NCBI GenBank assembly: GCA_024345305.1
Contig: BRON01000008.1
Coordinates: forward strand, 744,001-808,000
Direction of reading: 5' to 3'
DNA length: 64,000 bases
Source: Mrakia gelida
Lineage: Eukaryota; Basidiomycota; Tremellomycetes; Cystofilobasidiales; Mrakiaceae
This document shows positions 17,534 to 45,859 of the stretch, piece by piece. A model generated the notes under the pieces. That model saw nothing but the letters and a program-made list of their open reading frames with translations, had not been told where the DNA came from and did not search any database. The stretch's first letter is position 1, and each line of letters opens with the position of its first letter. A program made the translations under genes and the position numbers.

Positions 17534-20500
17534 TCACCTCCCCTCGTCTAAACTGTTCCCCAACCTCATTCCTCCCACCCGCTCTTCTCCTATCCCCCAA
17601 TCCTTCACCCTCACCACCAACCTCCTCTTCGCCGCCCCATTCATCTTCAGCACCCCTACCACCCACTCCAACTTCTCCTCCCCTCCCATCCTCGCCAGGT
17701 CTGCTCCTCCTCCGTCGCGTGCGACCGTCGTGCCCAACGACACCAAGCACTCGTTGCATACCATCCGAGCAGGTTCTGCGAGTTCGATCTTTTTGAGGAA
17801 TTTGACACTCCCGCCTGCCATGCCGCAGAACCAGCAGTAGCGGTGTGGGGAGAAGGAGGGAGCGACGCCGACTTGGAGGAACGAGGGTGGTTGGGCAAAG
17901 CGAGAGAGGGAGGAGACCGGTGGTGCGAGGGAGGGGAGGGGAGGTGGAAGGGATGGGAAGTTAGGAGGTCGAGGTGGAAGTGCTGAGGGAAGTTGAGATG
18001 GGGGGAAGGTTGTTGAGAGGAGGGGAGGGGGAGGACGCGAGTAAGATCCGGACGCGACCGACGAGGCTTGATTTTTGGAGGGGATTTCGACAGTCCTAGG
18101 ACGGTTGAGCCATGATGGATGAGCTAGTTGATGACGGAAGGGTTGAGTTGAGGAGGACGACGACGACGACGAGGACGAGGGAAGGGAAGAAAGGTTGAGC
18201 GAGGAGGAGCAGAACGAAGCCGACGGGTCCGTCGTCATGGCGAGTAACGTCGCGTTGAAACGACTTGGGTCCCTTTGGTACCACCATCGAATCTGTCCGA
18301 TGGTCCTCTCCGGATGCTGCGTTGGGATTGGGTTACGAAGGGAGAGAGGTTGAAAGGGTCAGTGAAGAGCAAGGGTTCGAGGAAGAAGACGAACAAGGTG
18401 CGAGAGGGTCGCTCGCGCTCGTAAGTCGGGCTAAAGTCGAGCCAAGAGCGAAAAAGGTGAGAGAGATACTACTCACGCGAGTGATGAAGGAAGCAAATGC
18501 AGCCTCGGTGTAGCCTCCGTGGGCGTGAACATGGCGAAGCAGTTCCGTGACGAGGGAGTCGGTCCAGGGTGGCAAGCTCTTCGGAACAGCCTGACCCGAT
18601 GCGACTCTTGAAGAGGAAAGGTTGCACAAGAGAGTAAGTGCGTTAGCTCGGATTCTTCAGCTGCGAGAGGAAGGGGCAGAGGCGAGCGAGGGAGCTCACA
18701 ACTTCGCCGTTCTCAGCTGCCTGACCAGCTCGTGGAAGTGCTCCCGGTTACTAGCGTAGCAGTGTTTGACGCGCTCGAAGGGGAGGTTGGGATGCTGCAG
18801 GTGGGCGAAGAGAGTGATTGAGAAAAATAACGATCAGCGAGGACGAGAGGAAGAGGAGGAAGCGAGCGACGCGTCCTTCGAAGATTCAAGCGTACCTTGA
18901 GTGATAGAATTTTGATGGCGCCGTTTATCGAACGAGACTCTTCGAAAGCAAATATACGAGCTAAATCTTCCGTCTGTTTCGTGGTAAGAGCTTGGAGGGA
19001 ACCGTGTTGAGTGACGTCGAGGACATGAACGGCCTTGTTCTTAGAGTAGTATACGTTGACGGCGACCTTGCTTCGAGTAGGATGCTGGAGAAGAAACGAG
19101 AGAAGGGTTCTTCGATCAGCACAGAGCGTCGACTAGGCAGGACGGACTATCAGAAAGTGAAAGAACGAAAAGACGAACCGAGTTCACGAACTGTTTGACG
19201 GCTTCCGGTAGGGAGAAGCTCTCACGAAGACAGACTGCGAATTCCTCAGCCTCCGGAGGCGTCCATCGGTGGCTGAAGCGGCTGAAGCGATGGGACAGAA
19301 ATGACGGGTTGATCAGCGAGAGAAAGAGCACGACGCGTCCATGTGCGAGAAACTCACTTCTTCGCGGCCCCGACACTCGAATCCTTCCGAGACTCCTCAG
19401 TGCGCAGCTCGGTGACCCCAGACTCAACCCTGGAAGTGCATACCACGAGCGAAGAAGAGTCAGCTCGCGTTCGGGTAAGGTTTCGTCTAGAAAAGATTAA
19501 CTCACCTCCTCGACGACAGCAGTTCCGCCTTATCACTCGAAGCGCCCTCAGGCTCCTCCCTTAGAAGCGTGATCATCGGCAGGAAGTAGAAGTCCCTCTT
19601 TCGATACTCACTCCTGCACTCCTCGGCGGTTCGCGTTGAAGTCTGACGCGTCCGAATCGAGGGAAAACGGTCAGTCCCTCGTTCCTTCCTCCAACGGCTC
19701 GAGTCGAGCTACGAAGCTGACTCACAGTAGAGTTATCAACGAAGTGGTCAAAGCTATCCAGTCCATCGTAGCCTTTGGTGAACGGATCAACGTCCGAATC
19801 GAACGAAGCGAGGAAACCAGCGAGGTTCTCGTCCTCGAGAGCGAGTAGACCTGCCGGGTCCGGATCGTCGTCCTCGTCGCTGCAGACGCAGACCGAGGAG
19901 AAGAGATTCAGCAAGGTGAGAAAGGACTGACTGGGGGCCGGAATGTAGGCAGGAAGGCGCTCTACTCACTCCAACTCATCGACTTCCTGATCACTGTCCA
20001 GCTCGTCCTCCTCCTCCTCCCCCAAAGCAATATCCCCTCCTGAGAGGTCCTCTTCTGCCTCACCATCTCGAAGTTCCAACTCCTCAGCATCTCCCATCTC
20101 GACGTCGGCTTCATCTTCTGCCTCAGCAACGAGTTCCGACGGCTCTCCGCTCGCGACGTTGAGCTCGACCTCGTCGACGACGATTCCTTCGCTCTGGATC
20201 GAGAGCTCCTCCTCCTTCACCTCCTCAACCCTTGGGATGTAGAGGTAGATCCCCTCGGGCTGCCACTGCTCGAAACGGATGCTCTCCTCGATCCATCTGA
20301 AGGCCAGGATGAAGGGAGGTCGAGAGGAAGGAAGGGGAGGAAGTGAGGGCTGAGCTTGAAGAAAGTCTTGTCCGAACGTCGAGAACGGGTTGAGGACGAT
20401 GTGGGTGGCTTCCGAGAGGGTGGTGGTGATGAAGGGAGTGGAGGTAGAGGCAAACTCCTGTATAGCATAGAGGGAAAGCGAAACAACGAGGTCAGCATGA

Positions 20501-20678
20501 GAGACGAGAGGTAGGGTCAGGAGGGCTGGAGTTTGAAGGAGGTGAAGGAACGAACGAGAAGCTCTTCAGAGAGGATTCGAGCTCGATCAGAGGTTGGGTC
20601 GAAGTAGAGTAAGAGTCCTTGGCCTCCGTTGGGGAAGCGGGTGGGAGTGGAGGCGGGAAAGGGAGTGTCGACGACCAT
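17534..20678 (-). CDS. BRCT - triple Myb-like - zinc-module protein (Rap1-like)
   Basis: Ten exons join in frame to 754 residues: 20556-20678, 19970-20457, 19726-19879, 19506-19642, 19358-19429, 19179-19272, 18896-19084, 18700-18794, 18477-18606, 17534-18316. Residues ~25-117 form a BRCT-type domain (LLLYFDPTSDRARILSEELL, PFITTTLSEATHIVL, FILAFRWIEESIRFEQWQPE). An acidic linker follows. Three Myb-like repeats follow, with recognition-helix starts at HPTRSKVAVNVYYSKNK (357), HPNLPFERVKHCYASN (420) and HPERTIGQIRWWYQRD (495). These resemble the Rap1-type Myb pattern hPxHTxxSWRxRY known from the family. A Ser/Pro-rich stretch leads to a C-terminal module (638-733): QPPSFLQVGVAPS, CWFC (655-658), KKIELAE, CNEC (681-684). 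BRCT + Myb suggests a telomere- or chromatin-binding role; that is inference. Homologous to both genes at 40.4-45.9 kb. Confidence 0.85.
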
Positions 20679-21460
20679 GGGAGAGGAGGGGGAAGGAAGG
20701 AGGAGGATGTTGAGCTCGAAGAAGAGAGGACGGCGAGCTCGTTCGTGAGGTTCCTTCTGAGCGACGGCTCGAGTCTCCGTGGCGAGAGGAGAAATCTAGG
20801 GGATGTGCTGAGACTACGACGAGGGTGAGAAGCGTTTCATGGGAAGGGAAAGAAGGGGGGAGGGTGAAGGTTGAGGTCGACGCAAAGTCAAAACCGTGTT
20901 GGCTCTTCGCTCTTTGCTTTTCTTCCTTTTTAGTGGCACTTTTTTCTCGAGGTGTCCAGCCCGAATCAGAAGAGACCAGTCTTAGGCCATCTGCCTTGTA
21001 TCGAACCCTTTAGCAACCTGCTGGTACCGAAAACCCGATCCAGCAGCGATTTCGGACGCGTCGCGACCCTGAGGTCGAGCTCACTCGATCGGCGAACCCG
21101 TTCACTTCTTGCCACAGACTCGGAAAGCTAGTTTCGTTCCCGCGAAGAGATCTGAATCTACTCCAGATCATCAGCTCGAGAACTTGATCCTCGCAACGCG
21201 CTCCAGCGCCCTCTCGAGCGTGCTTTCCCTCCCTCCCTCTCGTCCGTCGCTCTCGTCCGTCCTCCCTCTCCGTCCAAAACAAGCTACCAAAAGATCGTCG
21301 TTCATCTAGAACGAAAAGCGTCCAAAAGGGATGAGAAAATGCAAAAGAGAAGAGAAAGTCAAGTGAAAACGAGAAAACGATGCGATGCAAAAGAAACCAA
21401 CCCGGCGCGTCTCCCCTCTCCCACCTTCCAACCACCCACCACCCACCCACACACCCACCA
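20679..21460. other. Intergenic region between two minus-strand genes
   Basis: Contains the promoter of the BRCT-Myb-zinc gene and the 3' end of the upstream gene. A GACGCGTC lies near 21056. Short open frames occur on both strands but none has good codon use or domain content. Confidence 0.4.
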
Positions 21461-23922
21461 CTAACCACCAAACAACCTCCCCAACCACCCAACAAACCTA
21501 CTCCACCAACCCCCCCTCCAGCCCTCTTCCCTCATCTTATCCCCCTTCCACATCCTCCCCGTCCACCCAACACCCTCCAGCACTCCCTTCCCAACCTTCT
21601 TCCCTTCTTCCCCTCTCGCTACCCCAGCGAGTCCCTCCTCCAACTCCTTCGGCGTTCCTGAAGACCCTCGCCGCGACCCCGACGTTGACGTCGAAGTCGC
21701 AGGCCCAGTGTAAGGGAACCTCGTATTCTTCACCGACGGCTGTGAACCCGTCGACTTGGTGACATGCGACGGGAACAGCCCGCACAATCTCAGAAGTTCG
21801 GGGTTGGGGAGGTTAGAGGGAGCTACCCACGTTCTCCATCTCGGAAGCAAGGGGTCTTCCTCGTCTTCGTCCGAGCGAGGTTCCGAGGATTCGTCCGAGG
21901 AGAAGGATTCTTCGTCGTCGACTGCTGAGGAGGAGTGGGAGAGGAGGGGGTTTGCTGAGCCTGGACTTCGAGCGGAGGAAGAGAGAGCTGATGGGGAGTG
22001 ACCTGGGAGGAGGAGGAAGTCTTCTTGACCGTTGGGAGTGGTGAAGCCTGGGGAGTGGATGTGGGAGGAGGTGTTGGACATGGATCGACCGCCGCCGCCG
22101 AGGGGAGAGGGAGTGTTGCTGTTCGCTGCGTCGAGGTTGAGGAAGGTAGGATGAGGGCGAGTTGGTGGTGGTGGTGGTGGTTGCGCTCCTCCTCGTCGGT
22201 TGACGGTGTTGGGAGGGACGGGAGGCGGTTGACGCGACATGTTGGCGTAAGGGTCTGAGAACGGATCCGACGAGGCGCGTCGGCGAGAGGAGATGAGGGG
22301 GTTGGAGGATGAGGAAGAGGAGAAGAGTTGTTGTTGAGTTGCTGTGGGTTGATGTCGTCCGTTGGAGGGGATGGGAGGAGCTTTCCCTCGTCGACCGGTC
22401 GCGGTCGCGGGAGGAGGGGAAGCGTACCTCCTCGAATCGTACAGAGGACCAGCCTCGTCATCTTCCGGGGTGGGACGAAGTTCCTCGAGATCTGAGGGAC
22501 GTCGATGGGAGGGACCCGCTGCTCCGTTGGGTAAAGAGTAGGAGGAGGTTCCTGTTGATTGAGCTGAGTTGGAGAAGGAACGACCGTTGGAGTTGGAGTT
22601 GGAGTTCGAGTTCCCTGGACGTTGCTGATGGCGGTGATGTCGACGAGGTTTCGTTCGAGGAATGTCTTCGAAGCCGAGGACCTGTGAAAACGATTGGAGG
22701 GAAGGAAGAGTCGAGAAGGAGGTGAGCTCATGTAAAAATGGACGCGCTCATCGTCTGTGCGAAGGAAGCGCGCGAAGGGAGGACGACGTACACCTTTGAC
22801 GACGGCGATGGCCTCAATCATGAAGTCCTTCCCTCCAGCTTCCATCCAGACAGCTAGCACAGAATAACAGAGAAAGCGATGATCAGCTCTCCTATTCGAA
22901 ACCCAAAGACGAAAGCAAGAGAAACCGAAAGACGAAACGAGCTCAAGCTCAAGCTCACCATCATCGACCTCCCACTCTACCCTCCTCACTCCCGCCCCAC
23001 CCTTCTCCTCCCCAACAGTCTGCAACCTCAACGCCGTCCACAACCCCACCAAGAAAGGTCTCGGTCCAACCTCATTCTTCCCCCCATAAGCCTTCAAGAA
23101 CCCTTTCAACCTCTCCTCCCTCTCCCTCCTCGCTCCCTTCCCCTTCGGATCCCTCCTGTTCCCAACTTGCAACCCCCCTCCACTTTCCGTCCCTCTAAGC
23201 AGCACCTCGAACTCGTTCCTCCTCCTGATTTCCTCATCAGCGTGGTAGCTGGCTCTGACAGCTGCTTGTACGCGAGTGAAGGCTGCTCGATGGGAAGGGG
23301 GGAGGGAGGAGAGGACGGATTCGATGTAGCGTTGAGCTTTTGGGTCTTGGAGGTAGAAGAATCGATGGCACGCGTCGTGGAAGAGGGAGATGTCTGCTGG
23401 GGAGGGGGAGGAAGGGTTCTGGGGGGCTTTGGAGAAGACGGAAGAGGATCCGGGGGTGGGTGAACGTAAGGGAGGAGGAGGAGTGAACGAGGAGGGTTGG
23501 TTGTAGGAAGGGCCGCGAGTGGGTTGAGGATGGTGAAGGGAGGTGGAAGGGTAGGACCGAGAGGTGGGAGATCCGTATCCACCGCTGGTTGAGTGAGTGG
23601 GAGAGAAGGGAGGTGGAGTGGAGCCTCCTTGGTTGTACGAAGAGAACGACGGAGGGGGAGGAGACGTGATCCCTCCTCCTCTCCCAGCCAATCCTCCTGC
23701 AGTCCTCCCTCCTCCGCCTCCTGCTGAGCCCGAAGAGGTATGCTGGAGTAAGGAAGGAGGAAGGTCGTACATGGGCCTGAAGTTGGTAGGCGTCCCAGCT
23801 CCTCCTCCTGTTCGTATAGGCGAAGGGGAGTGAATCGTCGAAGAGGAGAAGGGAGACGGCGCCGGAGGGGCAGGAGGGTGTCGTCCTTGTCGATGAGAGG
23901 GAGGGTAGGCTGTAGAGGTCAT
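21461..23922 (-). CDS. Large low-complexity protein with a short conserved-looking core
   Basis: Not recognised. Start MTSTAYPPSHRQGRHPPAP at 23922; three exons (22959-23922, about 22792-22856, 21461 to about 22683). The N-terminal ~180 residues are Pro/Gly/Ser-rich and look disordered. A folded segment follows: ISLFHDACHRFFYLQDPKAQ, RYIESVLSSLPPSHRAAFTR, ASYHADEEIRRRNEFEVLLR, then RPFLVGLWTALRLQTVGEE. Across the introns it reads VWMEAGGKDFMIEAIAVVKG and VLGFEDIPRTKPRR. The C-terminal half is again disordered (polar, Asn/Ser repeats). It ends with a Trp/Gly-rich tail, WRGGWWSRFVGWLGRLFGG, which could be a membrane-interacting helix. Function unknown. Confidence 0.7.
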
Positions 23923-24683
23923 CTCTTGAGAGGAGCAGAGGGTAGGTCGTCCTCCGTTCTATACGACGAAGGGCGAGCTAGACGAGGGGAAGGAGGGAAG
24001 AAGGAAGGGAGACGTGGTTGAGGGACAGACCAGCTTCGAAAGCGAGAGCAGAAGGAGAAGGGCTCGGCTGCTTCGCCTCTTTCAGGGCCGCGAAGCTGTG
24101 ATTCAACGACTTTTCATCACTCTTTCCGAACACGTCTCAGCCTCTCGACTGAGTGTATGGACTCGCTTCTCTGTCTCAATCGCTCCCATCTCCTTGCAAA
24201 AGAAGCTCAAGAACAAGGACGACGTGAAGAAGAAGGTTCCATGTCGATCTCCCAAGCCGAGAAGACGCCGACCCTCCCCTTGATTCAAAACGAAACACGA
24301 CCTTTTTGTCTCTTCTGGGAGGCGAATATCCGCCAGAGGTACGTGTTTGGATGTCGTGAGAGTGAGGGAGGTCGATAGATCTGTGGGAAAGAGGTGGGAG
24401 GAGGGAGGGTAGGGAGGGAGCGCGTCGCGTCAGTTCAGGCTGCCTCGTCTCGCTCGACTCGACTCGACGAGAGCTCGAAGGAGGAGATTCGACTCACCCA
24501 GCTCACTCTCAGAACATCTCCTGGATCTCCTCTTCTTCCAACCAAGCGCGTCAAAGAGCGCCGTGGCAAACTAAGAAGCAAAAACGAGGGATCTCGAGGT
24601 CAGCTCAGCTCAGTCCTCACGCGTCTCCTCGTCTCCTCCCTCCTGCCCTCCCACTTCGAACTCACCTAAACGACACCCAACCC
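23923..24683. other. Intergenic region
   Basis: Promoter of the low-complexity protein gene and 3' side of RRP40. Mixed purine-rich and pyrimidine-rich tracts; no gene recognised. Confidence 0.4.
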
Positions 24684-25772
24684 TTACTCAGCCACCACAC
24701 CCTCCAACCCATCCACCCACTCTCCCACCTTCTCAGCTCCAACCCTGCCCTCATCGACCTCCTTGATCGCTCGTCCAAGCGCAATCGTCTGCGTGATCGT
24801 TCCAGCTCGGATCCAGACCTGTCCGTTGACTCCGATGGCGGTCTCGAAGGGGAAGCGAGCGGCGAGGAGAGGGAGGAGAGGGTAGGTTGGGTGAAGGAGG
24901 CTGCAAACGCAAACGAGGACGAGGAGGGAGAGGGTCAGAGAGAGCGAGCAGGAGCGAGACGAAAGAGCTGGATGGAGCTGAGGTTTAGAAGGAGGACGGC
25001 GAAACTCACTGCCTAGACATCTGAAGCGAACAAGGGACGACCATCCCTCCCTTGAGTTCCTCGAAGCCCTCGGCTTTGCGAGTGGTAGCGTCGAAGCATT
25101 CGAGCTCAGGTTCCATGTCCCTGTTGGCGAGGGAGACTCGAGCGTAGACGAGGGAGCCAACCTGGTAAGAGCGAGAAACGAGACGAAGACGTGAGAACAA
25201 CCAGAGTAAGCTGCTATCGCACTGAAGCCTCGAGGTATATAGAGAAGCTCGGAGGAGAGAGCAAGGGCTGACCTTGAGGTTGGGCTTGTTCCTCTTGGTC
25301 GCACCTTCGAAAGCGAGAGCGTCCAACGAAGCCATCTGAGCTGATCCGATATCGACTCTGTAGCCCTCAGCATGACGAGCTACAACGGTTCCGATGACGG
25401 ATTCCTGGGTTGCTGGGATGTACTGTAAAAGAAAGAGGGGGGGAGGAAGGGAGATCGAAGGGAAGGGAGGGAAAAAAGGTCAGCTTCGCTCGTTTCCAAC
25501 TCCTTCCCCTTCTAGCAGTCCTTGTTCTTCTCGAGCTCAGACAGGAGATATGTAAAGAAGTTACTAACCCTCTTCCCTTTTCCCTCTACCCAGACCTTCT
25601 TTCCTCCCTTATCGAACCCTAGGACTCCTGCTCTTGTAGCGACGAGGAACTGAGCTGTGGAGGACGTCCCTCTCGACGAGGTTAGGAGCGTTCCAGGACC
25701 GAGTTTGGAGACGTTGGAGGAAGAGACGGAAGGGAGAATATCTCCCGGAAGGAGGACAGCGGCTGTAGACAT
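24684..25772 (-). CDS. RRP40: RNA exosome cap subunit Rrp40 (EXOSC3)
   Basis: Non-catalytic cap subunit of the RNA exosome, acting in nuclear and cytoplasmic RNA processing and decay. Exon 1 (25569-25772) is the N-terminal domain: MSTAAVLLPGDILPS, LGPGTLL. Exon 2 (25273-25422) starts the S1 domain: YIPATQESVIGTVVARHAEG, YRVDIGSAQMASLDALAFEG. It continues VGSLVYARVSLANRDMEPEL and FEELKGGMVVPCSLQMSRQ. The last exon carries the KH-type part, FPFETAIGVNGQVWI, with the family's G-x-N-G, then a variable C-terminus ending GLEGVVAE. Its start codon is 188 bases from that of the divergent PWWP gene, so the two probably share a promoter. Confidence 0.92.
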
Positions 25773-25960
25773 GATGGAGAAGGAAGAGAAGATAGGAGAA
25801 AGGGCGGTGTGGTGGTTAAGGTCGCTCCAAGGGGAGGAGGTCGCTTCTCAAAATCGTTGAAGAGTTGGAGTCCTCCTCGTCCTCCCTTCACCTCGACCAC
25901 ATCAACCTTCTTCACCCCTTCCCCTTTTTTTTCTTCTTTCAGCCCCCTTCCCAGTCCATC

Positions 25961-31094: not shown

Positions 31095-31774
31095 TCTGAA
31101 TGAAGGTAGCCGGCGGGAGGGGAGGAGAGGTGGGTGCGTCGAGGGAGGACGAGGAGCGAGCGAGCGAAGGCGAAGAAACTTGAGCTCTGGAAGAACAAAG
31201 TCGAGTAGAGGTAAGGGAGTGGGAGGGGATGGTCGTGGTTTGAGGATGGGAAGAGAGTTTTGTTCCGTGAGGGAAGGGAGGCGAGGGGGAGGGGGAGCGA
31301 TCAGGTCCAGAGTCAGGAACGGCGGGGGTCGGAATGAGAAGATTTGAAGCAATGACGAGATGCTGAAGCGTGTGAGAGTGTATGTACTCGAGAGCTTGAG
31401 GTCGAAGAGGTTAGAGGATCAAAAGCAACGACCAAATCAGCTGTTTCTTTGCTAAGATGGAGCGTTGAGGGAAGGGAGAGGGAAGGGAAGGGAGAGCGGG
31501 AAGCCCGAGACACTTCCTCGATGATCTCTTCCCCATCTTTTGGGTCGAGGAAGTTTTTCCGGCGTGATCGAGAGCGGTGTTGATACCTGGGGTATGGGTC
31601 CGTTTGGACGAAGCTGATTTTCGTCGAAGATGCGGTTAGAGAGGTTCAAGGAGGCCAGGAAGAGGAAAGAAGGAAAGCTCAAGCTCAACAAAAGTGACAC
31701 GACGTTTCCTTCCCTCGACAGTCATCATCTCCCCTTCCCTCCTTCTTACCCTCGCTCGCTACAGGACCTCTAAG
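31095..31774. promoter_or_regulatory. Divergent intergenic region before DAP1
   Basis: Promoter region for the membrane-protein gene and DAP1. It ends in a pyrimidine-rich leader just before the DAP1 ATG. No box or RNA gene is recognised. Confidence 0.4.
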
Positions 31775-32660
31775 ATGGCCTCTACGCTACTCTCCTCGAC
31801 GATCATCCCCCTCCTCCTTTCGCTCCCACCTCTCTACCTGATCTACACACTCCTCTTCCCTCCCATCCCCGCTCGCTTCTCCTCGTTGAACCCTCCTCCT
31901 TCCTCTCACCACGACGGCTACACCTGGCTCCCTCTCAAAGCTCAGGAGTCGCTTCTCCTCAAGGACTACACTCCCAAGACCCTCGAACCTTTCAACGGAA
32001 CAGAGGGGAAGAAGATTTTCTTGGCCTTGAAGGGAACCGTCTTCGACGTCAGTCAAGGAGCTCAGTTCTACGGACCAGGTGCGTCTTCCGTTCGCCTTTC
32101 TCGTCGAACTGTAGGGATCAGAGCTAATCAAAGCTCTCTGATTTGGATGGGACGTTCAGACGGACCGTATGGAAACTTCGCTGGACGAGATGCTAGCAGG
32201 GGAATGGCGAAGCAGAGCTTCGAACCTGGTGAGTCGTCGTACGAGTTGTGCTCAAGCTCGAGCTCACCTTCCCTTCCCTTCCTCGCTCTACGACGCGAGC
32301 GTTGCGCTGACTCTTGTCTCTTGCTCTTGTTCTCTATTGACAGAAATGCTCACTCCCGTGGATCAACCCATCGACAAGCTCGAGGACCTCGACAAGGGCG
32401 AGATGTTCGTTTCCATCTCCTCGCTTTGCTCGACTCCCATCCCCCTTCTCGCTGCCCTCGAAGAACTGACTCGTTCTCGGTTCCTCCTCTCTACCATCAG
32501 TGAGAACATGGATGGTAAGCCTCTCGTTTCCCCATCATCGCTGCTCGTCCTTCCAGCTCGAGGCTGACTCTCCCTCTCTCTCGTTCCTCTCTCGGCAGGT
32601 TGGATGGAACACTTCACCAACAAATACGTCGTCTGTGGGCGTCTCGTCGAGAACGAATGA
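31775..32660 (+). CDS. DAP1: MAPR/Dap1 haem-binding cytochrome-b5-like protein
   Basis: Membrane-associated progesterone-receptor family protein; yeast Dap1 binds haem and supports the cytochrome P450 Erg11 in sterol synthesis. The N-terminus is a membrane anchor (MASTLLSSTIIPLLLSLPPL, YLIYTLLFPP). The cytochrome-b5-like fold follows: KDYTPKTLEPFNGTEGKKIF, LALKGTVFDVSQGAQFYGPG, then GPYGNFAGRDASRGMAKQSF, the MAPR signature. The last exons give EMLTPVDQPIDKLEDLDKGE and WMEHFTNKYVVCGRLVENE, stop TGA 32658-32660. Length and order match the family. Five exons. Confidence 0.9.
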
Positions 32661-34895: not shown

Positions 34896-35099
34896 GATGT
34901 CTGTGAAAGGATGGATGTTGATGGTAGGCAAGAGTGGGGGTTTGGGTAGATGGTGGTTGGTGGGAAGGAGAGGGAGAGCGAAGAGTCAGCTGGTTTTGGA
35001 AGACGAGGGGAGATCGAGTCGATGCGTCGTTCTGGGCCCTGCGGACTCAAACCACCTTGTGCTTGCCCTTCGTCTTGAATCTTGATCTCGCAAACGACG
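34896..35099. promoter_or_regulatory. Short bidirectional promoter, small membrane protein / OMA1
   Basis: About 200 bases between two divergent start codons. No named box recognised. Confidence 0.45.
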
Positions 35100-37492
35100 A
35101 TGATGCTCGCAAACACTTTACATCGATCTCTTAGTCTTGGAACTTCATCAACATCAACTCTACGGTCAACGACCCTTCTGAAGCCGCCATCCCGCTCTCT
35201 CCTCCTCCTCGCCTCTTCCTCGTCTTCGCTCCCTCGTCCAGCTGTCTCGAGACCATCTCCTCTTCCTCCCTTTCGTCCTCCAAACATCCTCACTCTTTCG
35301 ACACGAACCTTTCACTCTTCGAGTCCGAGAAAGGACATCGTCGTTTTCGCCTTTCCGGTAAGCAAAATATTCCAGTCGAGACGAGCTCAATCTCTCTCCA
35401 ACGAAGCTGACCTTCCTCCTCCTCCTCCTCCCTCCCTCTCTCCAGGCTCTCAAGTCCGGCCTCTTGACTGTCACTAGAGTCACACTCCTCATGCTCCCTT
35501 TCGTGTGGAGATGGAAGTGAGTGATCTCTACTGCCTCGTCCTGAGCTCGTACTGATCAAGCTCGTTTCGCAGACTTTGGCGGAGATACCGAAAGATGTCG
35601 CTCGCACTCGTCCAGATCCCCGTTCGTCCCTTCGTTCCCCTCCCTTCCACTCGCCTTTGCTGACTCTTGGCTACTCCGCGCACTCAGATCTTCGCATTGT
35701 GCCTCATCTTCGCTCTCGGACTCGACCAAGCTCCAAACACTCAGCGCTGGAGGCTCCTGCTCATGAGCGAACCCGAGGAGCTCGCTTGGTCTCGTCGTCG
35801 GTTCGTCTCGTCTCTCCTCTAGCCCTTCTACGGTTTCTTTGGATCCAGGTCTCGAAAATATACACAGAAGAAGGACGCGACTGACTTCCCACCTCCTCCT
35901 TCCCTCTCCCTCGTCCTCCGTAGCGCCGAAACCCAACTCTTCACCGACCTCCCTCTCCTCCTTCCTTCCACCTCCCCTCAATCCATCCAAACCCTCCGCG
36001 TCGCCACCCGTCTCGTAGAAGCCATCGACGCGGCCTCTCTCAAGCAGTCCAAACCCATCGTCTCCTTCGCTCGGTTCATGTCCGGAGGGATCGCTCGAGA
36101 CCCTCAGGACGAGGAGATGGTCGACTTCGAAGCTTTCGTCGGAGGAGAGGACGAGTGGGGTCCCGGAGCTTGGGGAGAGGCGAAATGGTTGAGGGAGAGG
36201 AGTAGTAATCTTGCTGCGAAGGCGGCGAAGAAGAACGGTACGGGTGGAGGGCAACAGAGGTCGAAAGGAGCGGAGTACTCGGACGGTGTGGAGAGGGGAG
36301 GGGAGGGAGAAGGAGGGCTCGCGAACGTGGTGAATGTAGGGGAGTGGAAGATCTATGTGGTGGATTTGGTGAGTCAACTTGTTATGTTTGCGTAGAAGTG
36401 GGTCGTGAAGAGCAAGCTGACCTTCATTCGCCGTCTCGCTCTCGTTCGACGCAGCCGAAGATCAACGCCTTTGCTCTGCCTTCGAAGGAGCTCTTCGTCT
36501 TCTCTGGTCTCGTTGATCTGGTCGAGGAGGACGAGCTGCTGGCTGCTGTACTATCCCACGAGATGGCACATGTGACTCAGCGTCACGCTGTCGAGAACGT
36601 GAGTCGAGTTCGACCGTCCTTTCTTTTCGTTTTCGACGCGTCGTGCTGACTCCTCTCGTCCCTCCTCTTCCGCCACAGCTCGGAGTGAGTTTGCCTACTG
36701 TCCAGATTCTGCTAGACCTCCCCTGACTCTTCTCTCGCCTTTTTCAGTTCCTCAACGTAGTAACGGTGCTCTTCGACGTCGTCCGAGGAATCTCGTACGC
36801 GCTCACCCTCTCCTTCCCTCTCGTGACCGACGGATTTGCTCTAGGGATCAACTATCTCAACGATGGTTCGTCTTCTCGGTCCCAGTCGATCCTTCCGAAC
36901 CTCGGCTGACTGACTCCTCTCCTCTCGTGCAGTCGTAACCCACCGAGCCTACTCTCGGAAACTCGAGATGGAAGCTGACGAGGTTGGACTCGAGGTTCGT
37001 TCCGTTGGCTCTTAGGACTCCTCCGAGCTCGCTCTTCCTTCGCGAACTGATCTTCTCCCCTCGTCCCTTCCTCGTCTTTCGCAAACATAGTTCATGGCAC
37101 GAGCAGGCGTTCGTTCTTGTCTCTCTTTCTCTGTTCCTCACCTCCCTCCCGCTGACCCGTCTCCTCCCCTTCTTCTCCTTCGGCAGTACAACCCCCAAGC
37201 AGCTCACGCCCTCTGGGACCTCATGGCCTGCGTCGAGTCCGACGCCAACGCAGCGGGTCAACCCGTCTCGATTGGAGAGAAGTTCGCTTTCCTTCAGACC
37301 CATCCCAACAACGGACAGCGACAACGTCACATCGAGAGGCTGCTGCCGAGAGCGTTGGATATCTGGAGGGACGCGAGGAAGGCGGGCGTCGGAGTTGGAG
37401 CGACGACGGTGGTGGGCGTGCCGAAGGCGGAGGAGAGGGCGGAGGAGGTGGTTGGAAAGAAGGACGAGGAGGTGGTCCTGGCAGCGGTCTGA
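35100..37492 (+). CDS. OMA1: Mitochondrial inner-membrane metalloprotease Oma1
   Basis: Zinc metalloprotease (peptidase M48) of mitochondrial inner-membrane quality control. The N-terminus MMLANTLHRSLSLGTSSTST and a Ser/Arg/Pro-rich stretch form the presequence. A hydrophobic stretch follows (SGLLTVTRVTLLMLPFVW), then LWRRYRKMSLALVQIP and IFALCLIFALGLDQAPNTQR. The catalytic block is INAFALPSKELFVFSGLVDL with HEMAH (the HExxH motif) at 36557-36571, then the third zinc-ligand region KLEMEADEVGLE. The C-terminal block is YNPQAAHALWDLMACVE and LQTHPNNGQRQRHIERLLP. About ten exons. One is only 6 nt (36679-36684, Leu-Gly), directly after VEN. Compared with yeast Oma1 it has an extra Gly/Lys-rich insert before IYVVDL. 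Confidence 0.92.
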
Positions 37493-39040: not shown

Positions 39041-39534
39041 GAGGAGAGGACCCAGGACCTAGGACTTTGAATAGCATAGCTTCGATCTATCACCCTCTTG
39101 AGCGAGCCCATCAGCCCGATTCCGAACCCAACCAGCGAGAGAGCGAGGGGGGAACCAAATCCGATCGAGCGTCGAAGAAGTCGACGTCGGTTCCTGGTTC
39201 GACTGATCACCTTCGTTCCTCGTCTCTCGCTCACCCAACCTCAGGTATCTCTTCCTCCAGAGCGTTCCTACCAAAGCGGAAGCGGAACACAAACCCTCTC
39301 GGATCCAGATAATTAATCAAAGCTCGCGTGGGGAGGGAGGGGGCGTTCGCTTCTGACGCGTCGATTCTCCAGCTTTTCCCTCTCCACGAAGTCATCGCAC
39401 GGAACTCACCTTCCCTCTCTCGATTCTCATCCGAACGCTTGGACAGAATCGAGCAAACCTGAGCTTCAGTTGTCTTGGTGTAGGTGAAGAGAGACAAGGT
39501 CGCTCTCAACGACCACCAACGAACGAAACAGCGA
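39041..39534. other. Intergenic region
   Basis: Promoter region of the next uncertain gene and 3' end of the GPI-type gene. GACGCGTC near 39356. No gene supported. Confidence 0.35.
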
Positions 39535-40129
39535 ATGTGCTCAGACTCCCCTCCTCCTCTCCAACCCTCCTCCCCCGAAGTCAGCTCGGACGAAGTCGAA
39601 GCTCAAGTGGACCAGGGAAGACGTCGTCCTTCACCTAGGTTCTCTCAGGATTCGTCCTCCTCCTCGACTTCGAGCATCGACACCCTCCTGGTCCCCTCCT
39701 CCTCTTCCTCAATAAACCCTCCCAGCTTTTCTTCCTCCTCGCAAGCTTCTCCATACCCAAATCCACCACCACCTTCCACATCCTCCTCTTCCGTTCCTCC
39801 CCCCAAATCAGCTTCCGGCCGCTTACCTTCGACGAGCTCAAACCTATCACCTCCACCTCTTGCAACGAGTGAGTCTGTCCCTCTCTTTTCCTCCCTCTCT
39901 CCCCTCTCCATCCTCCCTCCCCTCCCTTTATAACTCCTCCCTCGCTTTCGCTTTCAGAACGAACCTCAACGCGCTTCTCCCCAACCTACCTCCTCCACCA
40001 CCCTCCCTCCCGAACAGGCGACGTCGGTCCCATCCCACCTAGACTGGTGAATTCCAACTTGGTCAAAGCGAGGGAGATCATCTTCGATAGGAGGATGTCG
40101 GGGGAGAGGATTGGTGGGGGGAGGGGATG
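39535..40129 (+). CDS. Uncertain gene, Ser/Pro-rich N-terminus
   Basis: Low-confidence model. An ATG at 39535 opens a Ser/Pro-rich frame (MCSDSPPPLQPSSPEVSSDE). A clear intron (donor gtgagtctg near 39870, acceptor ttcag at 39958) follows a segment that reads best in a different frame: RPLTFDELKPITSTSCN. Beyond the intron that frame continues FSPTYLLHHPPSRTGDVGPI and LVNSNLVKAREIIFDRRMSG to a TGA near 40129, with the C/G-ending codons typical here. The first frame across the same intron stops at 40042. Joining the two good frames needs a 35-nt intron (CTG|gtcccc...cccag), unusually short. Either this is a two-frame gene with a missed intron or only the 3' frame is real. Confidence 0.35.
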
Positions 40130-40409
40130 AGCGAAGCAGAGCGAGCGTGGGAGGTAGGGGTGGGGGAGGGAGGGAGGAGGAGGGGTGCGACGCGGCGACT
40201 CAGCCGAGCGTTTGACGTTTGAGCTTCGAGACCAGACGAGGACGCTTTTCTGTATCGGTATAGACTGCTTGGCTGGACTCGGAAGTGTTGTATCAGTAGA
40301 TCAATATATAGAGTAGGTTCGTAAATTCGTAGATGGTCGTTAAAAGAAAAAGGCGTGCGTGCAAAACGTGAAACAAATCGAAGCGAAGCAAACCAACACC
40401 CTCCCTCTC
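40130..40409. other. Convergent intergenic region
   Basis: 3' region between the uncertain gene and the BRCT-zinc gene; AT-richer around 40280-40345. Nothing recognised. Confidence 0.35.
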
Positions 40410-42406
40410 TCACGCGTCTTCCATACCCCCCTCGTGAACCAACATCCTTCTCTCCCTCAACCCATTCTCCTTAAGCATCTTCGTCACCGTCGCCAACCTC
40501 TTCAACCCCTCCCCAGCCCCGTCCCCTTCCTTCGTCGTCGGCGCGGGGAGCCTACTCTCGTACCTCTCGACGCAGAACTCGCACGCCAACCTCGCTTCCA
40601 CCCTCACGAAGGTTCCAGAGTCAGGTGGGAGCTCGTCGGCGAGGTCGAGGGTCTTGAAGGAGTTGGATTCGAGGGTTCCTGTTCCGCAGAAGTAGCAGAA
40701 CGGCAAGGTGGGCGTGCAGATGTTGGTGGAGGGAGGGACACCGAGGTTGAGGAAGGTGGGAGGTTCGGAGTTGGAGGAGGAGGGGTGGAGAGGAGAGGTG
40801 GGGTGGGGAGGAGCAGGGGGAGAGGGGTGGATGGGGTTGGTGGAGGGAGAGGAAGAGGAGGGAAGGGTGATGGGTTGGTTGGGGAGGGACGCGACTGGAG
40901 GAGGAAGAGGAGGAGAGGCGATGGGTTGGGGTCTGACGGCTTCGTTGAGGGTGGATTTTGATGCGACGGTCGACGATAACTTTGGAGTTCGAAAGGAGGA
41001 GGGAGTGTCGAGAGGAGGAGAAGATGGGGAGGGGTGGCGAGGAGGTTTCGAGGTGGGAAGGGATCTCGACGCGTCGATGCTCGTTTCGACTCGCGACTTC
41101 TTTGACGGCGATGGTTCCGACGAAGTGGAAGGGGATGGTCTCTTGGAAGGGACGACCGGAAGAGGGTGGGCGATGACCGTCGTGGTGCTGACCGGCATGG
41201 AGGAGAGGACCTGAGCGGACGAAGTGCGAGCCGACGAGGACGAGGAGGAGGAGGAAGACGTCTCTGCTGTTCCACCATCCTCAACCCTCACCCTCACCCG
41301 TCTCTTCTCCAACCCTCTCTCCTTCAGCTTCCTCGTAAACCAGATCAACTCCTGCAAGCTCCGCAGCTTCTCAGCGCCCCCGACAGAGGCTCCTCCAACG
41401 ACCGCATTCAACTCAACCCACCCAGCTCTGACGCATTCCGGACAGCCGTACCTCGCGAACCTCATCACCTCCCCAGAACCAGCTTCGATGACCTCAGCCA
41501 GCTCCGTCCTCTTGAGGGTGTTCGTCTCGTTGGCTTCGCTAGCGCAAAACCAGCAGAAGGAGGCCGGCCGAGAGGAGGAGGAGGAGGGAGCGACGCCGAA
41601 TCGGAGGAAGGAGGGAGGTTCGAGGGAGGAGGTGCTGAGCGAGGTTGAGGTAGGGTGGGGAGGAACGGTGCGTGCGAAAGGGTTGGTTGGACGAGGTTGA
41701 GGGATGGAAGTGGTGATGGTGGTGGTGGTGTTGGAGGAGAAACGGAACGAGGGAACGACCTGCTTGTTCGGATCGACGACGGCAACCACCTCCCTCCCTT
41801 CGACGCTGCTCTGACTGATGCCCTGACGGTCCTTCGCGACCTCCGGAACGTAGAGGTATCCCTCCTCTGGCTGCCAGGTCTGAAGCCTGATGCTGTCCTC
41901 GAGCCATCGAAAACTGAGGATGTACTGGGGGCGAAGGAGGGAGGAGGAGGTCGAGGAGGAGGAGGAGGACTGAGCGTGAGCTCGGAGGAGGAGGTCCCCT
42001 AGAAAGGAAGGAGGTTCGACGAGGACGTGAGATGCTTCCGAGATGGTAGTGGTGATGAAGGACGTAAAGTCTTGGGTCTGATTCTGCAAAGTGAAGGAAG
42101 AGAGGAGCGGTCAGGACGAGAAAGAGGGAAGGGGAGGAGGAGATGGGACCCAGGACGAACGAGCAGAAGCTTGCGGAGTTTCCCAGCCTTCTCCGAGCTG
42201 GCATCGAAGTATATCAGGGGTTTCTGAGGGTCCGGTAAGGGAATCAAAGGGCTGGAGGCGAAGAGGGAAGCATGGTCTTGGAGGAGAGGGAGGCGAAGGA
42301 GGAGGGGTGGAGGAGGAGGGCGGCGAGCTCGAGGTGGAGCTCGGATGGGTGCCAGGGGAGCTGGAAGGGAGCGAGGATGGAGGGTTTGATGGTGCGACGT
42401 CGACAT
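40410..42406 (-). CDS. BRCT protein with two CxxC-CxxC zinc-type modules
   Basis: Two exons (42161-42406, 40410-42083) give 639 residues. The BRCT-type domain spans ~64-165: LIYFDASSEKAGKLRKLLL, then after the phase-0 intron FTSFITTTISEASHVLVEPP and YILSFRWLEDSIRLQTWQPE. Module 1 (~237-350): EPPSFLRFGVAPS, CWFC (259-262), LKRTELAE, CPEC (296-299), RKLKERGLEKRRVRVRV. Module 2 (~521-635): EPPTFLNLGVPPS, CYFC (545-548), FKTLDLADE, CEFC (583-586), KMLKENGLRERRMLV. A Ser/Pro-rich linker with basic clusters (PSKKSRV) may hold a nuclear signal. It has no Myb repeats. The module is the same as in the protein at 17.5-20.7 kb, and the start codon faces that of the BRCT-Myb gene 362 bases away. Function unknown; probably nuclear. 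Confidence 0.85.
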
Positions 42407-42768
42407 GGAATGACGAGAGGTCTAGTAGGCTTTATCGAAAGTGGGGAGGGAGGGGCAAGAATCCCATTGAAGGAAAGGAAGGGTCGTGGTTGGAGGTCAC
42501 CTCGACCGGAGAGAGTAGGAGGTGGGAATGAGTCTGTTTCGGGGGCAGTTTTCATCCAGAAAAACTGCAGATCTCGAGGGTAGGTACTCGTCTGAGCTCG
42601 TATATCTCCTCAAGAAAAATCAGGATTTTGGCGGAAAAGAAAGCGGAGGAAAAGGAGGGAAAAAAGTGAGACGGCAGGTTGACCATCGACCGTCGCCTCT
42701 CCCTTCCTCCCTCTTCTTGCTTCCTACCCTCTTGAGCATCACACACCTTGTTGGACCTCCTCCTCTCT
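42407..42768. promoter_or_regulatory. Shared promoter of the divergent BRCT gene pair
   Basis: 362 bases lie between the two start codons of the paired BRCT genes, so both are likely driven from here. The sequence is purine-rich, with a pyrimidine-rich leader (42690-42740) before the plus-strand gene. No ACGCGT core is seen in it. Confidence 0.5.
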
Positions 42769-45700
42769 ATGTTGACCTCGACATCCCCAGAAATGGTCTC
42801 CTCATCTCTCGACTCGATCCCTGGATCTCCTTCTTCCACTCAACCTTCCCAACCTACCCTTCCTTCGGCCCTCCCCTCCCTCCCCTCCCTCCTCCCACCT
42901 TCAAACGACGCCGACCCCTCTGCCTCTCCGCAAAAGACGCTAGGTCGACCTCAGGACTACATCTTCTTCTTTGATCCTACCTCTGAGAAGGCAGCCAAGC
43001 TCTCAGCGGATCTCATCGTTCGTCCATCTTCCCCAGCTCGACCTGCTCTTCATGTTCCCTCTGCTCCTTCTTCGTTTCGTCTCGTGCTGACTTCGTGCCC
43101 GCTTCCCCTTTTCACTTCTTCAGACTCTCATCCCCGACGAACCCTCTTTCATCACCCCTACCCTCGAAGAAGCCACCCACGTCCTTCTCGCTCAGCCCTC
43201 AACCTACGCAGACCAACTTGTTCAAGCCCGAGCTCGCTCCCCTCCTCCTCCCTCCTCCCCATCCTCTTCCTCTCGACCCCAGCAGCTCCTCGCCCTCGAA
43301 TGGGTCCGGGAGAGTATCAGGTTGAAGGAATGGCAGCCTGAGGAGAGATACATCTACGTTTCGATGCCTGAGGAGGGGAAGGGAAGGGTTGGCAGGGTCT
43401 CGAGGAGGTGAGTCGGAAGTCAATCGTCTCGATCTCGTCTTCTTCTCTTCGCTCGTCGTTCCGTTCGAAGCTGATATCGTCCTCGTGGCTGCTCTTCCAC
43501 ATGAATTAGGTCTGCTGGTGGCTCATCTGTTCCTGAATCTTCTCTGCCCAAGGGGACGGTACTCAAGCCAAAGGAGAAGAAGGAGACGACGAAGGCGTCG
43601 AAGAAGAAGTGAGTCTCGCACAACCGACGTTTTCCCTTTCTTTCAAACCCACCTGGACCTTCAACAAATCTCTTCTCCCTTTCCCACAGGGCCGTCTCTG
43701 CAGCATACTCCGTCCAAGAGTCCACCGACCTACGACGCTTCCTTCGAGAGAGCCAAACCATCGCTGACGCTTGCGAGAAGATGGCCGCTGCTGTTCGTCC
43801 TTTCCGTCTCCTCGTTCGAACCTCGACTCAGCGAGATGCATCTTACTTTGACTGACCTTCTCCTCCTTTCTTATCCCCAGCATCCTCGACGAACAGCTGG
43901 AACGGTCCGAGTCTACTACTCCAAGAACAAGGACGAGTTCGAGGACGAGCTGGGATCGGAGGCTCCAGTTCACAGCTGGGTTTGGACGCCGGACGAGCAT
44001 GTTCTCCTCGTCAAGGTCCTCGCTGGACCTGTAGGAAGTCTCAACCGGGGGTTCAAGGCTTTCAGCGAGCAGGTAAGTCAGCTTCTCGTTCGACGCAGCG
44101 AGTTCATTCTCTCGTCGCTCAGGCGATTACTCTCTCCCTTCGTTCGACTGACTGACTCGATCTCTTTCCTTTCTTCCTCGGTTCTGATGGTGCAGCATCC
44201 CAAGAGGAGCGTCATCGCAGCTGCGAAGTACTACCAGAACAACCGGATCCGACTCGAGCTCGAGATTGAAGCGTTGCAGAAGGACCCGTCGTCGTGGTCG
44301 TCCGGATCGAAACCTACGAATGGTTCGCCAGGTTCTCCCTCCTCTTCGGAGTCGTCGACGATGGAATGGGGAGAGCAGGAGGAGATAGAGATTGTTCAAT
44401 CTGAGCCGAAGAGGAGGAAGAAGTGAGTCCACTTCGAGCGCGTTTCGTTTGGTTTCGTTTTGTTTCGCTCGCTTCGCGTCGTTCGACGACCTTCGGCTGA
44501 CGTCTCTCCTTCATCTCCTTCGCTTTCACAGGCCTGCACCGAGTATCCCATACACCGAGGAGGAGACAGCAGACCTTCAACGGATTCTGAGAGAGAGCGA
44601 GACGCTGAAGGAAGCGGCGGAGAAGATGGAGAAGGCTGTGAGTTCGAGTTTCCTCCCTCGTCCTCTCCGTGAAAGGAGCTCGTTCTGAATATCTCTCTCT
44701 CTCTCACTCTCTTTCGATAGCATCCTCGGCGAACGGCAGTATCGATCGGGATGTACTGCTATCGTCACAAGGAGACGTTCGCCACCGACTTCAAGCCTCG
44801 ACCTCCCTCAATCCCGTGGACGAAGCAGGAGGAGCAGGATCTCTTGCGTACCTTCGCTACCTCGACGGAGACGCTCTTGATGCAGTGCCAGGCTGTACAT
44901 GATATGGTGAGTTTTTACTTCGCCTGTTCTTCGCGACAACTTTGCGTCCTCGTCTCGTTGTTGACTTCTCGGATTGACGCGTCGTTTCCTTTGCTCCCCC
45001 TCGTCTCCAGCACCCTCATCGAACTCCCCTCTCCATCTCAGCCTACTGGTTCAAGCACCGAGATCGCCTCAGTCCCCTCGTCGACGCCATCAAGCAAACT
45101 CTCCCACCACCACCGCCCCCTCCTCCTCCTCCCGTAACTACCACCTCCTCCGACGCTCCTCCCTCCTTCGCCTCGATCTTGGGCAGCATCAACTCCCTCC
45201 TTCAGAACAACCCTCAAGCTTCATCATCATCATCGTCATCCAAACGGCCTTCGGAAGAACCATCAGCACCTACACCGCCAAAACGAGGTCGACTCGACGC
45301 CTCTCCTCCCCCCGAAGTCATCCTCGCGTCGTCGTCGACCTCCTCAGGATCCGTTCTCGGCCTCCTCGCTCTTCCTCGACTCGCTCCTCCCAAACCACCT
45401 CCTACCAAGCCTCAGCCCAAGCCGAGGAAGTCGAATCCGACGACGACGAAGATCAAGGTCGAAGAGCAGGAGGTCGTCGCCTCTCCGGTCGCCGTCGCGT
45501 CGAAACCAACTCAACCCGGTCGAATCATCCTTCGCCTACCTCCCTCCTCCTCCGCCTCTAAACCCTCACCTTCCAAGAAGCTCAAAATCGAACCCCCCTC
45601 TCCCTTAGCACCACCACCTCCTCCAGCTCCCGTCGTCGCACCTACTACAATCCCAAAGTTCTCGCTCCCCCGCCTCTCCCTTTCCGCTCGTCCTTCAGTC

Positions 45701-45859
45701 CCCAAGGTCGTCGTTCCCGCAGCCCAAACCCCTGCAGCTCAACCTCCAACGGCCGATAAACCACTCATCCCCGTCTCTCAGGAGGAACGGCCTGCACCGG
45801 AAGCGGAGGAGGAAGTCGGAGGAGGGAAGGGAACGAGGAGGTCGTCAAGGAGGAGGTGA
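42769..45859 (+). CDS. BRCT - quadruple Myb-like protein (Rap1-like)
   Basis: Nine exons join in frame to 764 residues: 42769-43017, 43124-43407, 43510-43608, 43690-43792, 43881-44072, 44196-44422, 44532-44637, 44721-44906, 45011-45859. The BRCT-type domain is residues ~70-165 (YIFFFDPTSEKAAKLSADLI, PSFITPTLEEATHVLL, LALEWVRESIRLKEWQPEER). Four Myb-like repeats follow, with recognition-helix starts HPRRTAGTVRVYYSKNK (246), HPKRSVIAAAKYYQNN (310), HPRRTAVSIGMYCYRH (421) and HPHRTPLSISAYWFKH (483). First helices include YSVQESTDLRRFL, VWTPDEHVLLVKVL, YTEEETADLQRIL and WTKQEEQDLLRTF. The C-terminal ~260 residues are Pro/Ser/Lys-rich and disordered, ending RRSSRRR. It has no zinc-type module. Likely a chromatin or telomere DNA-binding protein; no Rap1 C-terminal domain is visible. 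Confidence 0.85.

What the first reader, a model, noticed from the sequence alone, without database searches (positions are those of the whole stretch)
17534..45859. A three-member Rap1-like BRCT family with modular shuffling in one window
Seen in sequence: three genes (17534-20678, 40410-42406, 42769-45859) share the same N-terminal block ([LI]xFDxxSxxAxxL, then FIT[TP]T[LI]xEA[ST]HV[LV]) and [FE]W[ILV][ER][ED]SIRxxxWQPE. The first combines BRCT + three Myb-like repeats + one CxxC-CxxC module; the second is BRCT + two such modules; the third is BRCT + four Myb-like repeats. Established: BRCT + Myb is the Rap1 arrangement, and hPxHTxxSW is typical of Rap1 Myb domains. Inference: an ancestral BRCT-Myb-zinc gene was duplicated and its halves partitioned, giving a set that may act together at telomeres or other chromatin. 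I know of no described three-paralogue system of this kind.
Basis: partly seen in the sequence, partly recalled or inferred. Interest (0 to 1): 0.93.

Follow-up and report, generated by a model that had tools for sequence, protein, structure and literature searches.

The report
One-chromosome BRCT-Myb-zinc protein gene family
The three related genes belong to a family of over forty likely DNA-binding proteins in a yeast related to Mrakia, almost all sitting on one chromosome, which is an unusual way for a gene family to grow and may mark a fast-changing set of gene or genome regulators.

Summary
The three genes are real and spliced as described: g1 20678-17534(-), g2 42406-40410(-), g3 42793 (or 42769)-45859(+). 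They share a BRCT domain; g1 and g3 carry Myb-like repeats, g1 and g2 CxxC...CxxC modules. Single proteins match nothing over threshold, but family profiles support BRCT (DNA polymerase mu BRCT, E 7.9e-5) and Myb (c-Myb 8.1e-7 summed over repeats; Rap1-type Myb units best 4.7e-4).

"Three-paralogue system" is wrong. Genome searches find at least 47 loci: 45 on the window's contig C8 (528 kb-1.665 Mb; C8 is 5.1% of the genome), one on C1, one BRCT-only remnant on C6. Of 43 loci read, 27 carry BRCT+Myb+zinc: g1 has the common plan, g2 lacks Myb and has two zinc modules, g3 lacks zinc. Myb repeats sit behind phase-0 exon boundaries (23 of 23 tested; 20 of 23 without domain hints). Ka/Ks is 0.26-0.51 in 19 pairs.

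The only database relative is from Mrakia frigida, not Pucciniomycotina. Likely role: nuclear DNA-reading adaptors; targets unknown. A KRAB-zinc-finger-like defence role is possible but untested.

The parts
17534..20678 (-). gene g1: BRCT + 4 Myb-like repeats (first one Rap1-type, divergent) + C-terminal zinc module; 10 exons, 754 aa
   Evidence: splicing; domain hits
20233..20618 (-). g1 BRCT domain, split by a phase-0 intron (20458-20555)
   Evidence: family profile vs PDB
19506..19879 (-). exons holding g1's divergent Rap1-type Myb-like repeat
   Evidence: E 7e-8 in a 34-protein set; Pfam Myb_Rap1 matches 4 of 20 such units but not g1's own
18254..19268 (-). g1 Myb-like repeats 2-4, each split by a phase-0 intron directly before HP
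17612..17890 (-). g1 zinc module (CxxC...CxxC)
40410..42406 (-). gene g2: BRCT + two zinc modules, no Myb found; 2 exons, 639 aa
41844..42223 (-). g2 BRCT domain with the same phase-0 intron
41289..41618 (-). g2 zinc module 1
40437..40763 (-). g2 zinc module 2
42407..42768 (.). short shared upstream region between the head-to-head genes g2 and g3
   Evidence: sequence and gene models
42769..45859 (+). gene g3: BRCT + 4 Myb-like repeats, no zinc module found; 9 exons, 756 aa from the ATG at 42793 (in-frame ATG also at 42769)
42955..43363 (+). g3 BRCT domain with the same phase-0 intron
43706..45070 (+). g3 Myb-like repeats 1-4, each split by a phase-0 intron directly before HP

Best explanation
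g1-g3 are three members of a large family of likely nuclear DNA-binding proteins that arose from one BRCT-Myb(n)-zinc gene in a Mrakia-like yeast. The family multiplied almost only within one chromosome, by DNA-mediated, intron-keeping duplication followed by dispersal and inversion. Its members diversified by gaining or losing symmetric phase-0 Myb exons and, less often, the zinc module. Shown: domains (at profile level), gene number, chromosome confinement, exon boundaries, purifying selection. Inferred: the proteins enter the nucleus, the Myb array reads DNA, the BRCT (and perhaps the zinc module) recruits a common partner or dimerises, and different Myb arrays send that partner to different sites.
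For: At least 47 loci, 45 on C8, which is 5.1% of the assembly; a Myb query gave 17 matches, all on C8; a control family (MFS) gave 10 matches on 7 contigs, none on C8. BRCT profile of 19 members matches pol mu, TopBP1 and BRCA1 BRCTs (E 7.9e-5, 1.1e-4, 6.4e-4). Myb profile of 30 repeats matches c-Myb (8.1e-7); Pfam Myb in 9 of 30 repeats at E<=1, best 5.3e-5, and over the cut-off in the C1 member (3.6e-6). 27 of 43 loci have all three parts. 23 of 23 tested repeats have a phase-0 boundary exactly before HP and the BRCT intron is phase 0 in 23 of 24 models; without domain hints 20 of the 23 remain. Ka/Ks 0.26-0.51 in 19 pairs; pooled over 8 pairs BRCT 0.26, zinc 0.31, Myb helices 1-2 0.31, Myb helix 3 0.42. 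Recent copies match through introns and mostly end near the gene. 21 plus- and 20 minus-strand loci on C8. 34 of 35 zinc modules hold two CxxC pairs. A basic KR-rich motif before NAVAS-like residues in 10 of 34 models, though not in g1-g3.
Against: No expression, localisation or DNA-binding data. A genome scan with Pfam BRCT_2 found none of the family, and of 19 members scanned alone only one matched a BRCT family (E 0.038), weaker than a chance hit to an odorant receptor (0.0073). Zinc module fold unknown (AlphaFold mean pLDDT 46). The c-Myb score is a sum over repeats; no single-repeat chain scores below E 0.03. Ka/Ks used only well-aligned columns, which biases it down, and the pairs share genes. 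Similarity and distance along C8 are only weakly linked (Mantel r 0.113, 149 of 5000 permutations as high), so simple tandem growth alone does not fit.
Confidence: 0.72

Rival explanations
1. A fungal counterpart of KRAB zinc-finger clusters: a chromosome-confined arsenal of modular DNA readers that silence transposons or other repeats through one conserved adaptor domain.
For: Conserved N-terminal domain (BRCT Ka/Ks 0.26) with variable DNA-reading arrays (0 to about 8 Mybs) and the least constrained domain part in the Myb recognition helix (0.42); KZFPs are often grouped in clusters grown by gene and segment duplication (abstract start of PMC10547255, seen in the listing).
Against: No link to any repeat was tested; the helix-3 difference rests on 203 codons and was not tested for significance; no pair's Ka/Ks exceeds 0.51.
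Confidence: 0.2
2. One reading: a Rap1-derived set acting together at telomeres.
For: BRCT then Rap1-type Myb order; Pfam Myb_Rap1 is the family matched most often by the Rap1-type Myb units (4 of 20, best 4.7e-4); TTAGGG telomeres.
Against: No Rap1_C in the three proteins or over cut-off in the genome (no positive control); at least 47 loci; passages of PMC7952879 and PMC7744550 name Tay1 and Trf2 as the duplex telomere binders of the basidiomycete Ustilago maydis.
Confidence: 0.08
3. Ordinary birth-and-death of a regulator family with little special function; confinement to C8 just reflects that duplication and inversion act within a chromosome.
For: Balanced strands, weak distance-similarity link, remnants (C6; BRCT-only at C8:1.665 Mb; a member with an in-frame TGA).
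Against: Ka/Ks below 1 in all 19 pairs compared; conserved zinc ligands.
Confidence: 0.3
4. Selfish elements: meiotic drivers confined to one chromosome, or mobile-element genes.
For: Multi-copy driver families are known in fungi (wtf, abstract starts in the listing; their chromosome bias is recalled).
Against: Copies keep introns and have multi-domain architecture; a mobile element should spread over contigs, and 45 of 47 loci are on one. C8 does not look like the mating-type contig: both STE3 receptors are on C16 and none of 11 homeobox hits is on C8.
Confidence: 0.05

Closest known systems
Rap1 (yeast Rap1 / TERF2IP)
   Same: N-terminal BRCT followed by one or more Myb-like domains (order recalled); Rap1-type Myb units match Pfam Myb_Rap1 weakly
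   Different: no Rap1_C domain found, a C-terminal zinc module instead, up to about 8 Mybs, at least 47 loci. A duplicated Rap1 pair is known (HpRAP1A/B, PMC6510891, abstract start seen in the listing)
KRAB zinc-finger protein clusters of mammals
   Same: large DNA-reader family with a conserved adaptor domain and a variable repeat array (recalled), grown in clusters by duplication (PMC10547255 abstract start)
   Different: BRCT instead of KRAB, Myb instead of C2H2, a fungus, one chromosome; target class unknown
Tay1 / TayL of fungi
   Same: fungal tandem-Myb proteins present in basidiomycetes
   Different: Tay1 has two consecutive Mybs near the N-terminus and binds TTAGGG (passages of PMC7952879); no BRCT or zinc module described in what was read
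Mrakia frigida BDY24DRAFT_445028 (hypothetical protein)
   Same: probable orthologue of member P: 73% identity over 111 aa of the zinc region; P is its best match among 34 family models (195 vs 147 bits for the next)
   Different: annotated at 371 aa; no BRCT or Myb seen in it by eye (no domain search made); the gene model may be truncated

Membership tests
Rap1 | N-terminal BRCT domain | tested here: met
   family profile vs PDB E 7.9e-5 to pol mu BRCT; not found by single-sequence Pfam in g1-g3, 1 of 19 members at E 0.038, none of the family in the genome scan with BRCT_2
Rap1 | Rap1-type Myb domain (PF08914) | tested here: inconclusive
   4 of 20 Rap1-type units match, best E 4.7e-4, g1's own unit not; 3 of 30 mixed repeats, best 0.005; C1 protein 0.18, under the cut-off; no Rap1 chain among PDB matches; genome scan 0 matches, but the control also rang nowhere
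Rap1 | C-terminal RCT domain (PF11626) | tested here: not met
   none in g1-g3 or five other members; genome: one sub-cut-off hit on C2, 17.4 bits (the control genomes rang nowhere, so the genome-wide absence is weak)
Rap1 | telomere association | not testable with these tools
   needs ChIP
TRF/Tbf1 | TRFH domain plus C-terminal Myb | tested here: not met
   no TRFH family in Pfam scans of g1-g3 and five other members; Myb repeats are central
Tay1 | two Mybs near the N-terminus | tested here: not met
   BRCT at the N-terminus, Mybs after it
BRCT domain | profile match to known BRCT structures | tested here: met
Myb/SANT repeat | profile match to Myb families | tested here: met
   PF00249 over cut-off in the C1 member; 9 of 30 repeats; c-Myb 8.1e-7
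KRAB zinc-finger proteins | KRAB domain and C2H2 fingers | tested here: not met
   none in Pfam scans of g1-g3 and five other members; compared for mode of working only
mobile element | copies dispersed over chromosomes | tested here: not met
   45 of 47 loci on C8
mobile element | terminal repeats or target-site duplications | not tested
   flanks were only compared for the extent of homology

The most novel reading that the evidence does not exclude
A fungus has independently evolved the KRAB-zinc-finger strategy with Rap1-like parts: a one-chromosome arsenal of BRCT adaptors whose exon-encoded Myb arrays are added, lost and re-aimed to silence invading repeats or other fast-changing targets.
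Probability: 0.2. Interest if true: 0.92.

Novelty: new variant of a known kind. Interest (0 to 1): 0.64.

Why it matters
As far as I recall, BRCT-Myb (Rap1-like) proteins number one or two per genome; here a genome carries at least 47 loci of that general design, nearly all on one chromosome, with Myb repeats on exons that can be added or removed without breaking the frame. If the arrays read different DNA sites, this would be a natural system for studying how a DNA-reader family is re-aimed, and a fungal test of ideas drawn from KRAB zinc fingers. It also raises a plain genome question: why would a dispersed family stay on one chromosome for so long?

Tried and rejected
Single-sequence Pfam scans and the first small-profile PDB searches were not enough: E 0.12 for BRCT, 0.3-0.6 for Myb. 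Only the larger family alignments settled them. Pfam scans of 19 BRCT members alone gave one BRCT match (0.038) beside unrelated families, and the BRCT_2 genome scan found none of the family. The zinc module has no clear PDB match (hits at E 0.76-7.9, mostly copper ATPases, are taken as chance); a weak Pfam TOP3B zinc-ribbon hit in the C1 member (E 0.11) was not used. AlphaFold of the zinc module on three window sequences gave pLDDT 46 and was not searched against fold libraries. Protein-database searches with the whole of g3 (7985 candidates) and with the g1 BRCT region (167 candidates) found nothing. Weak off-C8 hits not counted as members: C14 (0.02) and C1 (0.23), C10 (0.40), C3 (0.25) and C1:11562 (0.87); also C8:881486 (0.09). 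I considered that C8 might be the mating-type chromosome: both STE3 receptors are on C16 and none of 11 homeobox hits is on C8, so this is unlikely. The Myb-repeat tree is mostly unresolved (27 of 39 inner branches open) and is not used. Automatic gene models for B and U appear to have absorbed neighbouring genes and X gave no model; the X-AC pair asked for returned nothing, leaving 19 of 20 pairs. The automatic model of g1 (711 aa) is shorter than the hand-made one (754 aa, reported); the automatic one entered Ka/Ks. Literature: ten searches listed no paper on such a family; only open-licence PMC papers are held and only the top rows were seen, so this does not show it is unpublished. I read passages of PMC7952879, PMC7744550 and PMC9119445; all other papers were seen as search listings with abstract starts only.
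Full report
What was checked. The window is C8:744001-808000 of a 34.86 Mb, 25-contig genome. Reading frames and splice sites around the three genes were read base by base and spliced. g1 has 10 exons and 754 aa, g2 two exons and 639 aa, g3 nine exons and 756 aa; all introns start with GT and end with AG. g2 and g3 are head to head, their starts 363-387 bases apart.

Are the domains real? The N-terminal blocks of g2 and g3 are each 45% identical to g1's and interrupted by the same phase-0 intron. Alone, the three proteins match nothing over threshold in Pfam, small profiles reach only E 0.12 (BRCT) and 0.3-0.6 (homeodomain/Myb) in the PDB, a genome scan with Pfam BRCT_2 finds none of the family, and of 19 BRCT members scanned singly one matches a BRCT family at 0.038, beside unrelated hits as good or better. 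With relatives combined, the BRCT profile (19 members) matches DNA polymerase mu BRCT at 7.9e-5, TopBP1 at 1.1e-4 and BRCA1 at 6.4e-4. The Myb profile (30 repeats) matches c-Myb at 8.1e-7, but as a sum over c-Myb's three repeats; no single-repeat chain scores below 0.03. Nine of 30 repeats match Pfam Myb at E<=1, best 5.3e-5, and the C1 member passes the Pfam Myb cut-off (3.6e-6). Many members also hold a longer-looped Myb, as a rule the first after the BRCT; g1 has a divergent one (residues 219-271, E 7e-8 in a 34-protein set with a profile rebuilt from its own hits). For 20 such units Pfam's most frequent family is Myb_Rap1 (4 of 20, best 4.7e-4; g1's own unit has no match), although no Rap1 structure appears in the PDB comparison. 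The zinc module (CxxC, about 30 residues, CxxC, then a tail) holds two CxxC pairs in 34 of 35 copies with E<1e-6; the exception has CxxxC, and one of the 34 (member N) is interrupted by a stop codon. Its fold is not known (AlphaFold pLDDT 46).

How many are there? Searching the whole genome with the g2 BRCT block gave 21 matches, 19 with E below 1e-4, all on C8. The g2 zinc module gave 34 matches, 30 with E<=2.7e-4: 29 on C8 and one on C1. A Myb query gave 17, all on C8. A second zinc query gave 43 matches, 37 with E<=3.5e-4: 36 on C8 and the same one on C1. A BRCT+Myb query gave 49 matches and added a C6 locus (E 4.2e-7) in which only the BRCT was found on reading. A few weak hits off C8 (E 0.02-0.87) were not counted. 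The tool says such counts are lower bounds. I read 43 loci (41 on C8, one each on C1 and C6); four more C8 loci are known only from the tables (about 877, 990, 993-996 and 1041-1043 kb). That makes 47 loci, 45 on C8. C8 is 1,792,598 bases, 5.1% of the genome. As a control for the tool, the MFS family gave 10 matches on 7 contigs, none on C8 (only 9 of 150 candidates were scored). Duplicates are not independent draws, so no probability is given.

Architecture. Of the 43 loci read, with gene spans set by hand, 27 have BRCT+Myb+zinc, 4 BRCT+zinc, 3 Myb+zinc, 3 BRCT+Myb, 3 zinc only, 2 BRCT only and 1 Myb only. Some apparent gaps are the profile's or the sequence's: F and AH do contain Myb units that a better profile sees, E one only weakly (E 0.06), and D, J and K reach the ends of the stretches held. 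So g1 shows the common plan, g2 is unusual (no Myb found, two zinc modules), and g3, W and AB lack a zinc module in the sequence held and have several Mybs (AB about 8). Wherever a repeat's HP motif was confidently placed in the models (23 cases with E<1e-3 starting at profile position 1), a phase-0 exon boundary lies exactly before it, and the BRCT intron is phase 0 in 23 of 24 models. The splice program had been given the domain hits as coding hints; run again without them it still places 20 of the 23 boundaries there. The helix-3 profile was built from exon starts, so repeats lacking the intron might be under-represented. Exons bounded by phase 0 on both sides can be added or lost without frame shift, which can explain the varying Myb number.

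Descent. In the BRCT tree, g1 pairs with the C8 gene at 832 kb (100/99); g2 and g3 fall with W, AB, AG and AH (84/89); the C1 and C6 copies pair (97/82) inside one of the two main groups. In the zinc tree the C1 copy again lies inside the C8 family, next to the C8 gene at 944 kb (96/85). That C8 gene (F) sits in the other main BRCT group, so F may be a recombinant between paralogues; support is moderate. Recent copies (M/T, R/N, AA/AD) are 73-81% identical through introns, and the match ends within about 140 bases before the start codon and about 105 bases after the stop; AG/AH share over 1 kb more upstream. Copies are thus DNA-mediated and mostly gene-sized. Strands are balanced (21+/20-), and likeness falls only weakly with distance on C8 (34 zinc modules, Mantel r 0.113, 149 of 5000 permutations as high). 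Within-chromosome duplication plus inversion fits best; this is inference.

Selection. Over 19 pairs (20 asked, one without a model) Ka/Ks is 0.26-0.51 in well-aligned columns. Pooled over eight pairs: BRCT 0.26 (556 codons), zinc 0.31 (658), Myb helices 1-2 0.31 (274), Myb helix 3 0.42 (203), linkers 0.43 (2226). The mask lowers these values, pairs share genes, and the differences were not tested. The genes are under constraint; the DNA-reading helix appears the least constrained of the folded parts.

Which organism. One database protein, of 590 candidates, matches the zinc region of member P: a Mrakia frigida hypothetical protein, 73% identical over 111 aa, closest to P among 34 family models. 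Mrakia is a tremellomycete of the Cystofilobasidiales. The Pucciniomycotina assumption is therefore not borne out; the species itself is not known. With the g1 BRCT region no relative was found among 167 candidates; the search needs shared exact words, so more distant relatives could be missed.

Mechanism. Shown: BRCT and Myb folds at profile level, conserved zinc ligands, constraint, chromosome confinement, exon boundaries. Inferred: nuclear localisation (a KR-rich motif before NAVAS-like residues in 10 of 34 models, not in g1-g3; NLS function not tested), DNA reading by the Myb array, partner recruitment by BRCT. The most likely working is that of DNA-reading adaptors. Whether they control genes, repeats or chromosome ends cannot be told from sequence. 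Membership of the Rap1 family is not claimed: its C-terminal domain was tested and not found.

Noticed in passing
G000 C16:465013-466017 and 503471-504508 (L046-L049); homeobox hits C16:222554-326504 (L053, L054, L056, L057): Two STE3 pheromone receptors 38 kb apart, and four of eleven homeobox hits (all four below the Pfam cut-off) 140-280 kb away on the same contig: perhaps a linked, possibly homothallic mating-type region.
   Followed up: no
L044, C8:1123420-1123422: Member N has an in-frame TGA inside its zinc exon: a possible pseudogene.
   Followed up: partly
C8 members Q, R, S, T (1189-1263 kb): Some models carry an extra GATA-like CxxC...CxxC motif (CxNC...KGKG...) between Mybs; named by eye from recall, no profile search made.
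   Followed up: no
C8:944347-946983 (member F): Its BRCT and its zinc module fall in different family groups, suggesting recombination between paralogues.
   Followed up: partly
C8:375537-378258: A separate BRCT_2 match on the same contig, below the Pfam cut-off (E 0.001-0.1), outside the family range.
   Followed up: no
C8:1741349-1741378 and C3:2270383-2270406: TTAGGG arrays away from contig ends in the partly listed matches: interstitial telomere repeats or assembly joins.
   Followed up: no
window 7886-12509(-), 12969-15697(+), 24687-25479(-), 36209-36646(+), 31640-32500(+): Neighbours include ordinary genes: FGAR amidotransferase, a diphthamide synthesis protein, exosome RRP40, an M48 peptidase and a cytochrome-b5-like protein, so this stretch of C8 looks like normal chromosome.
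   Followed up: yes
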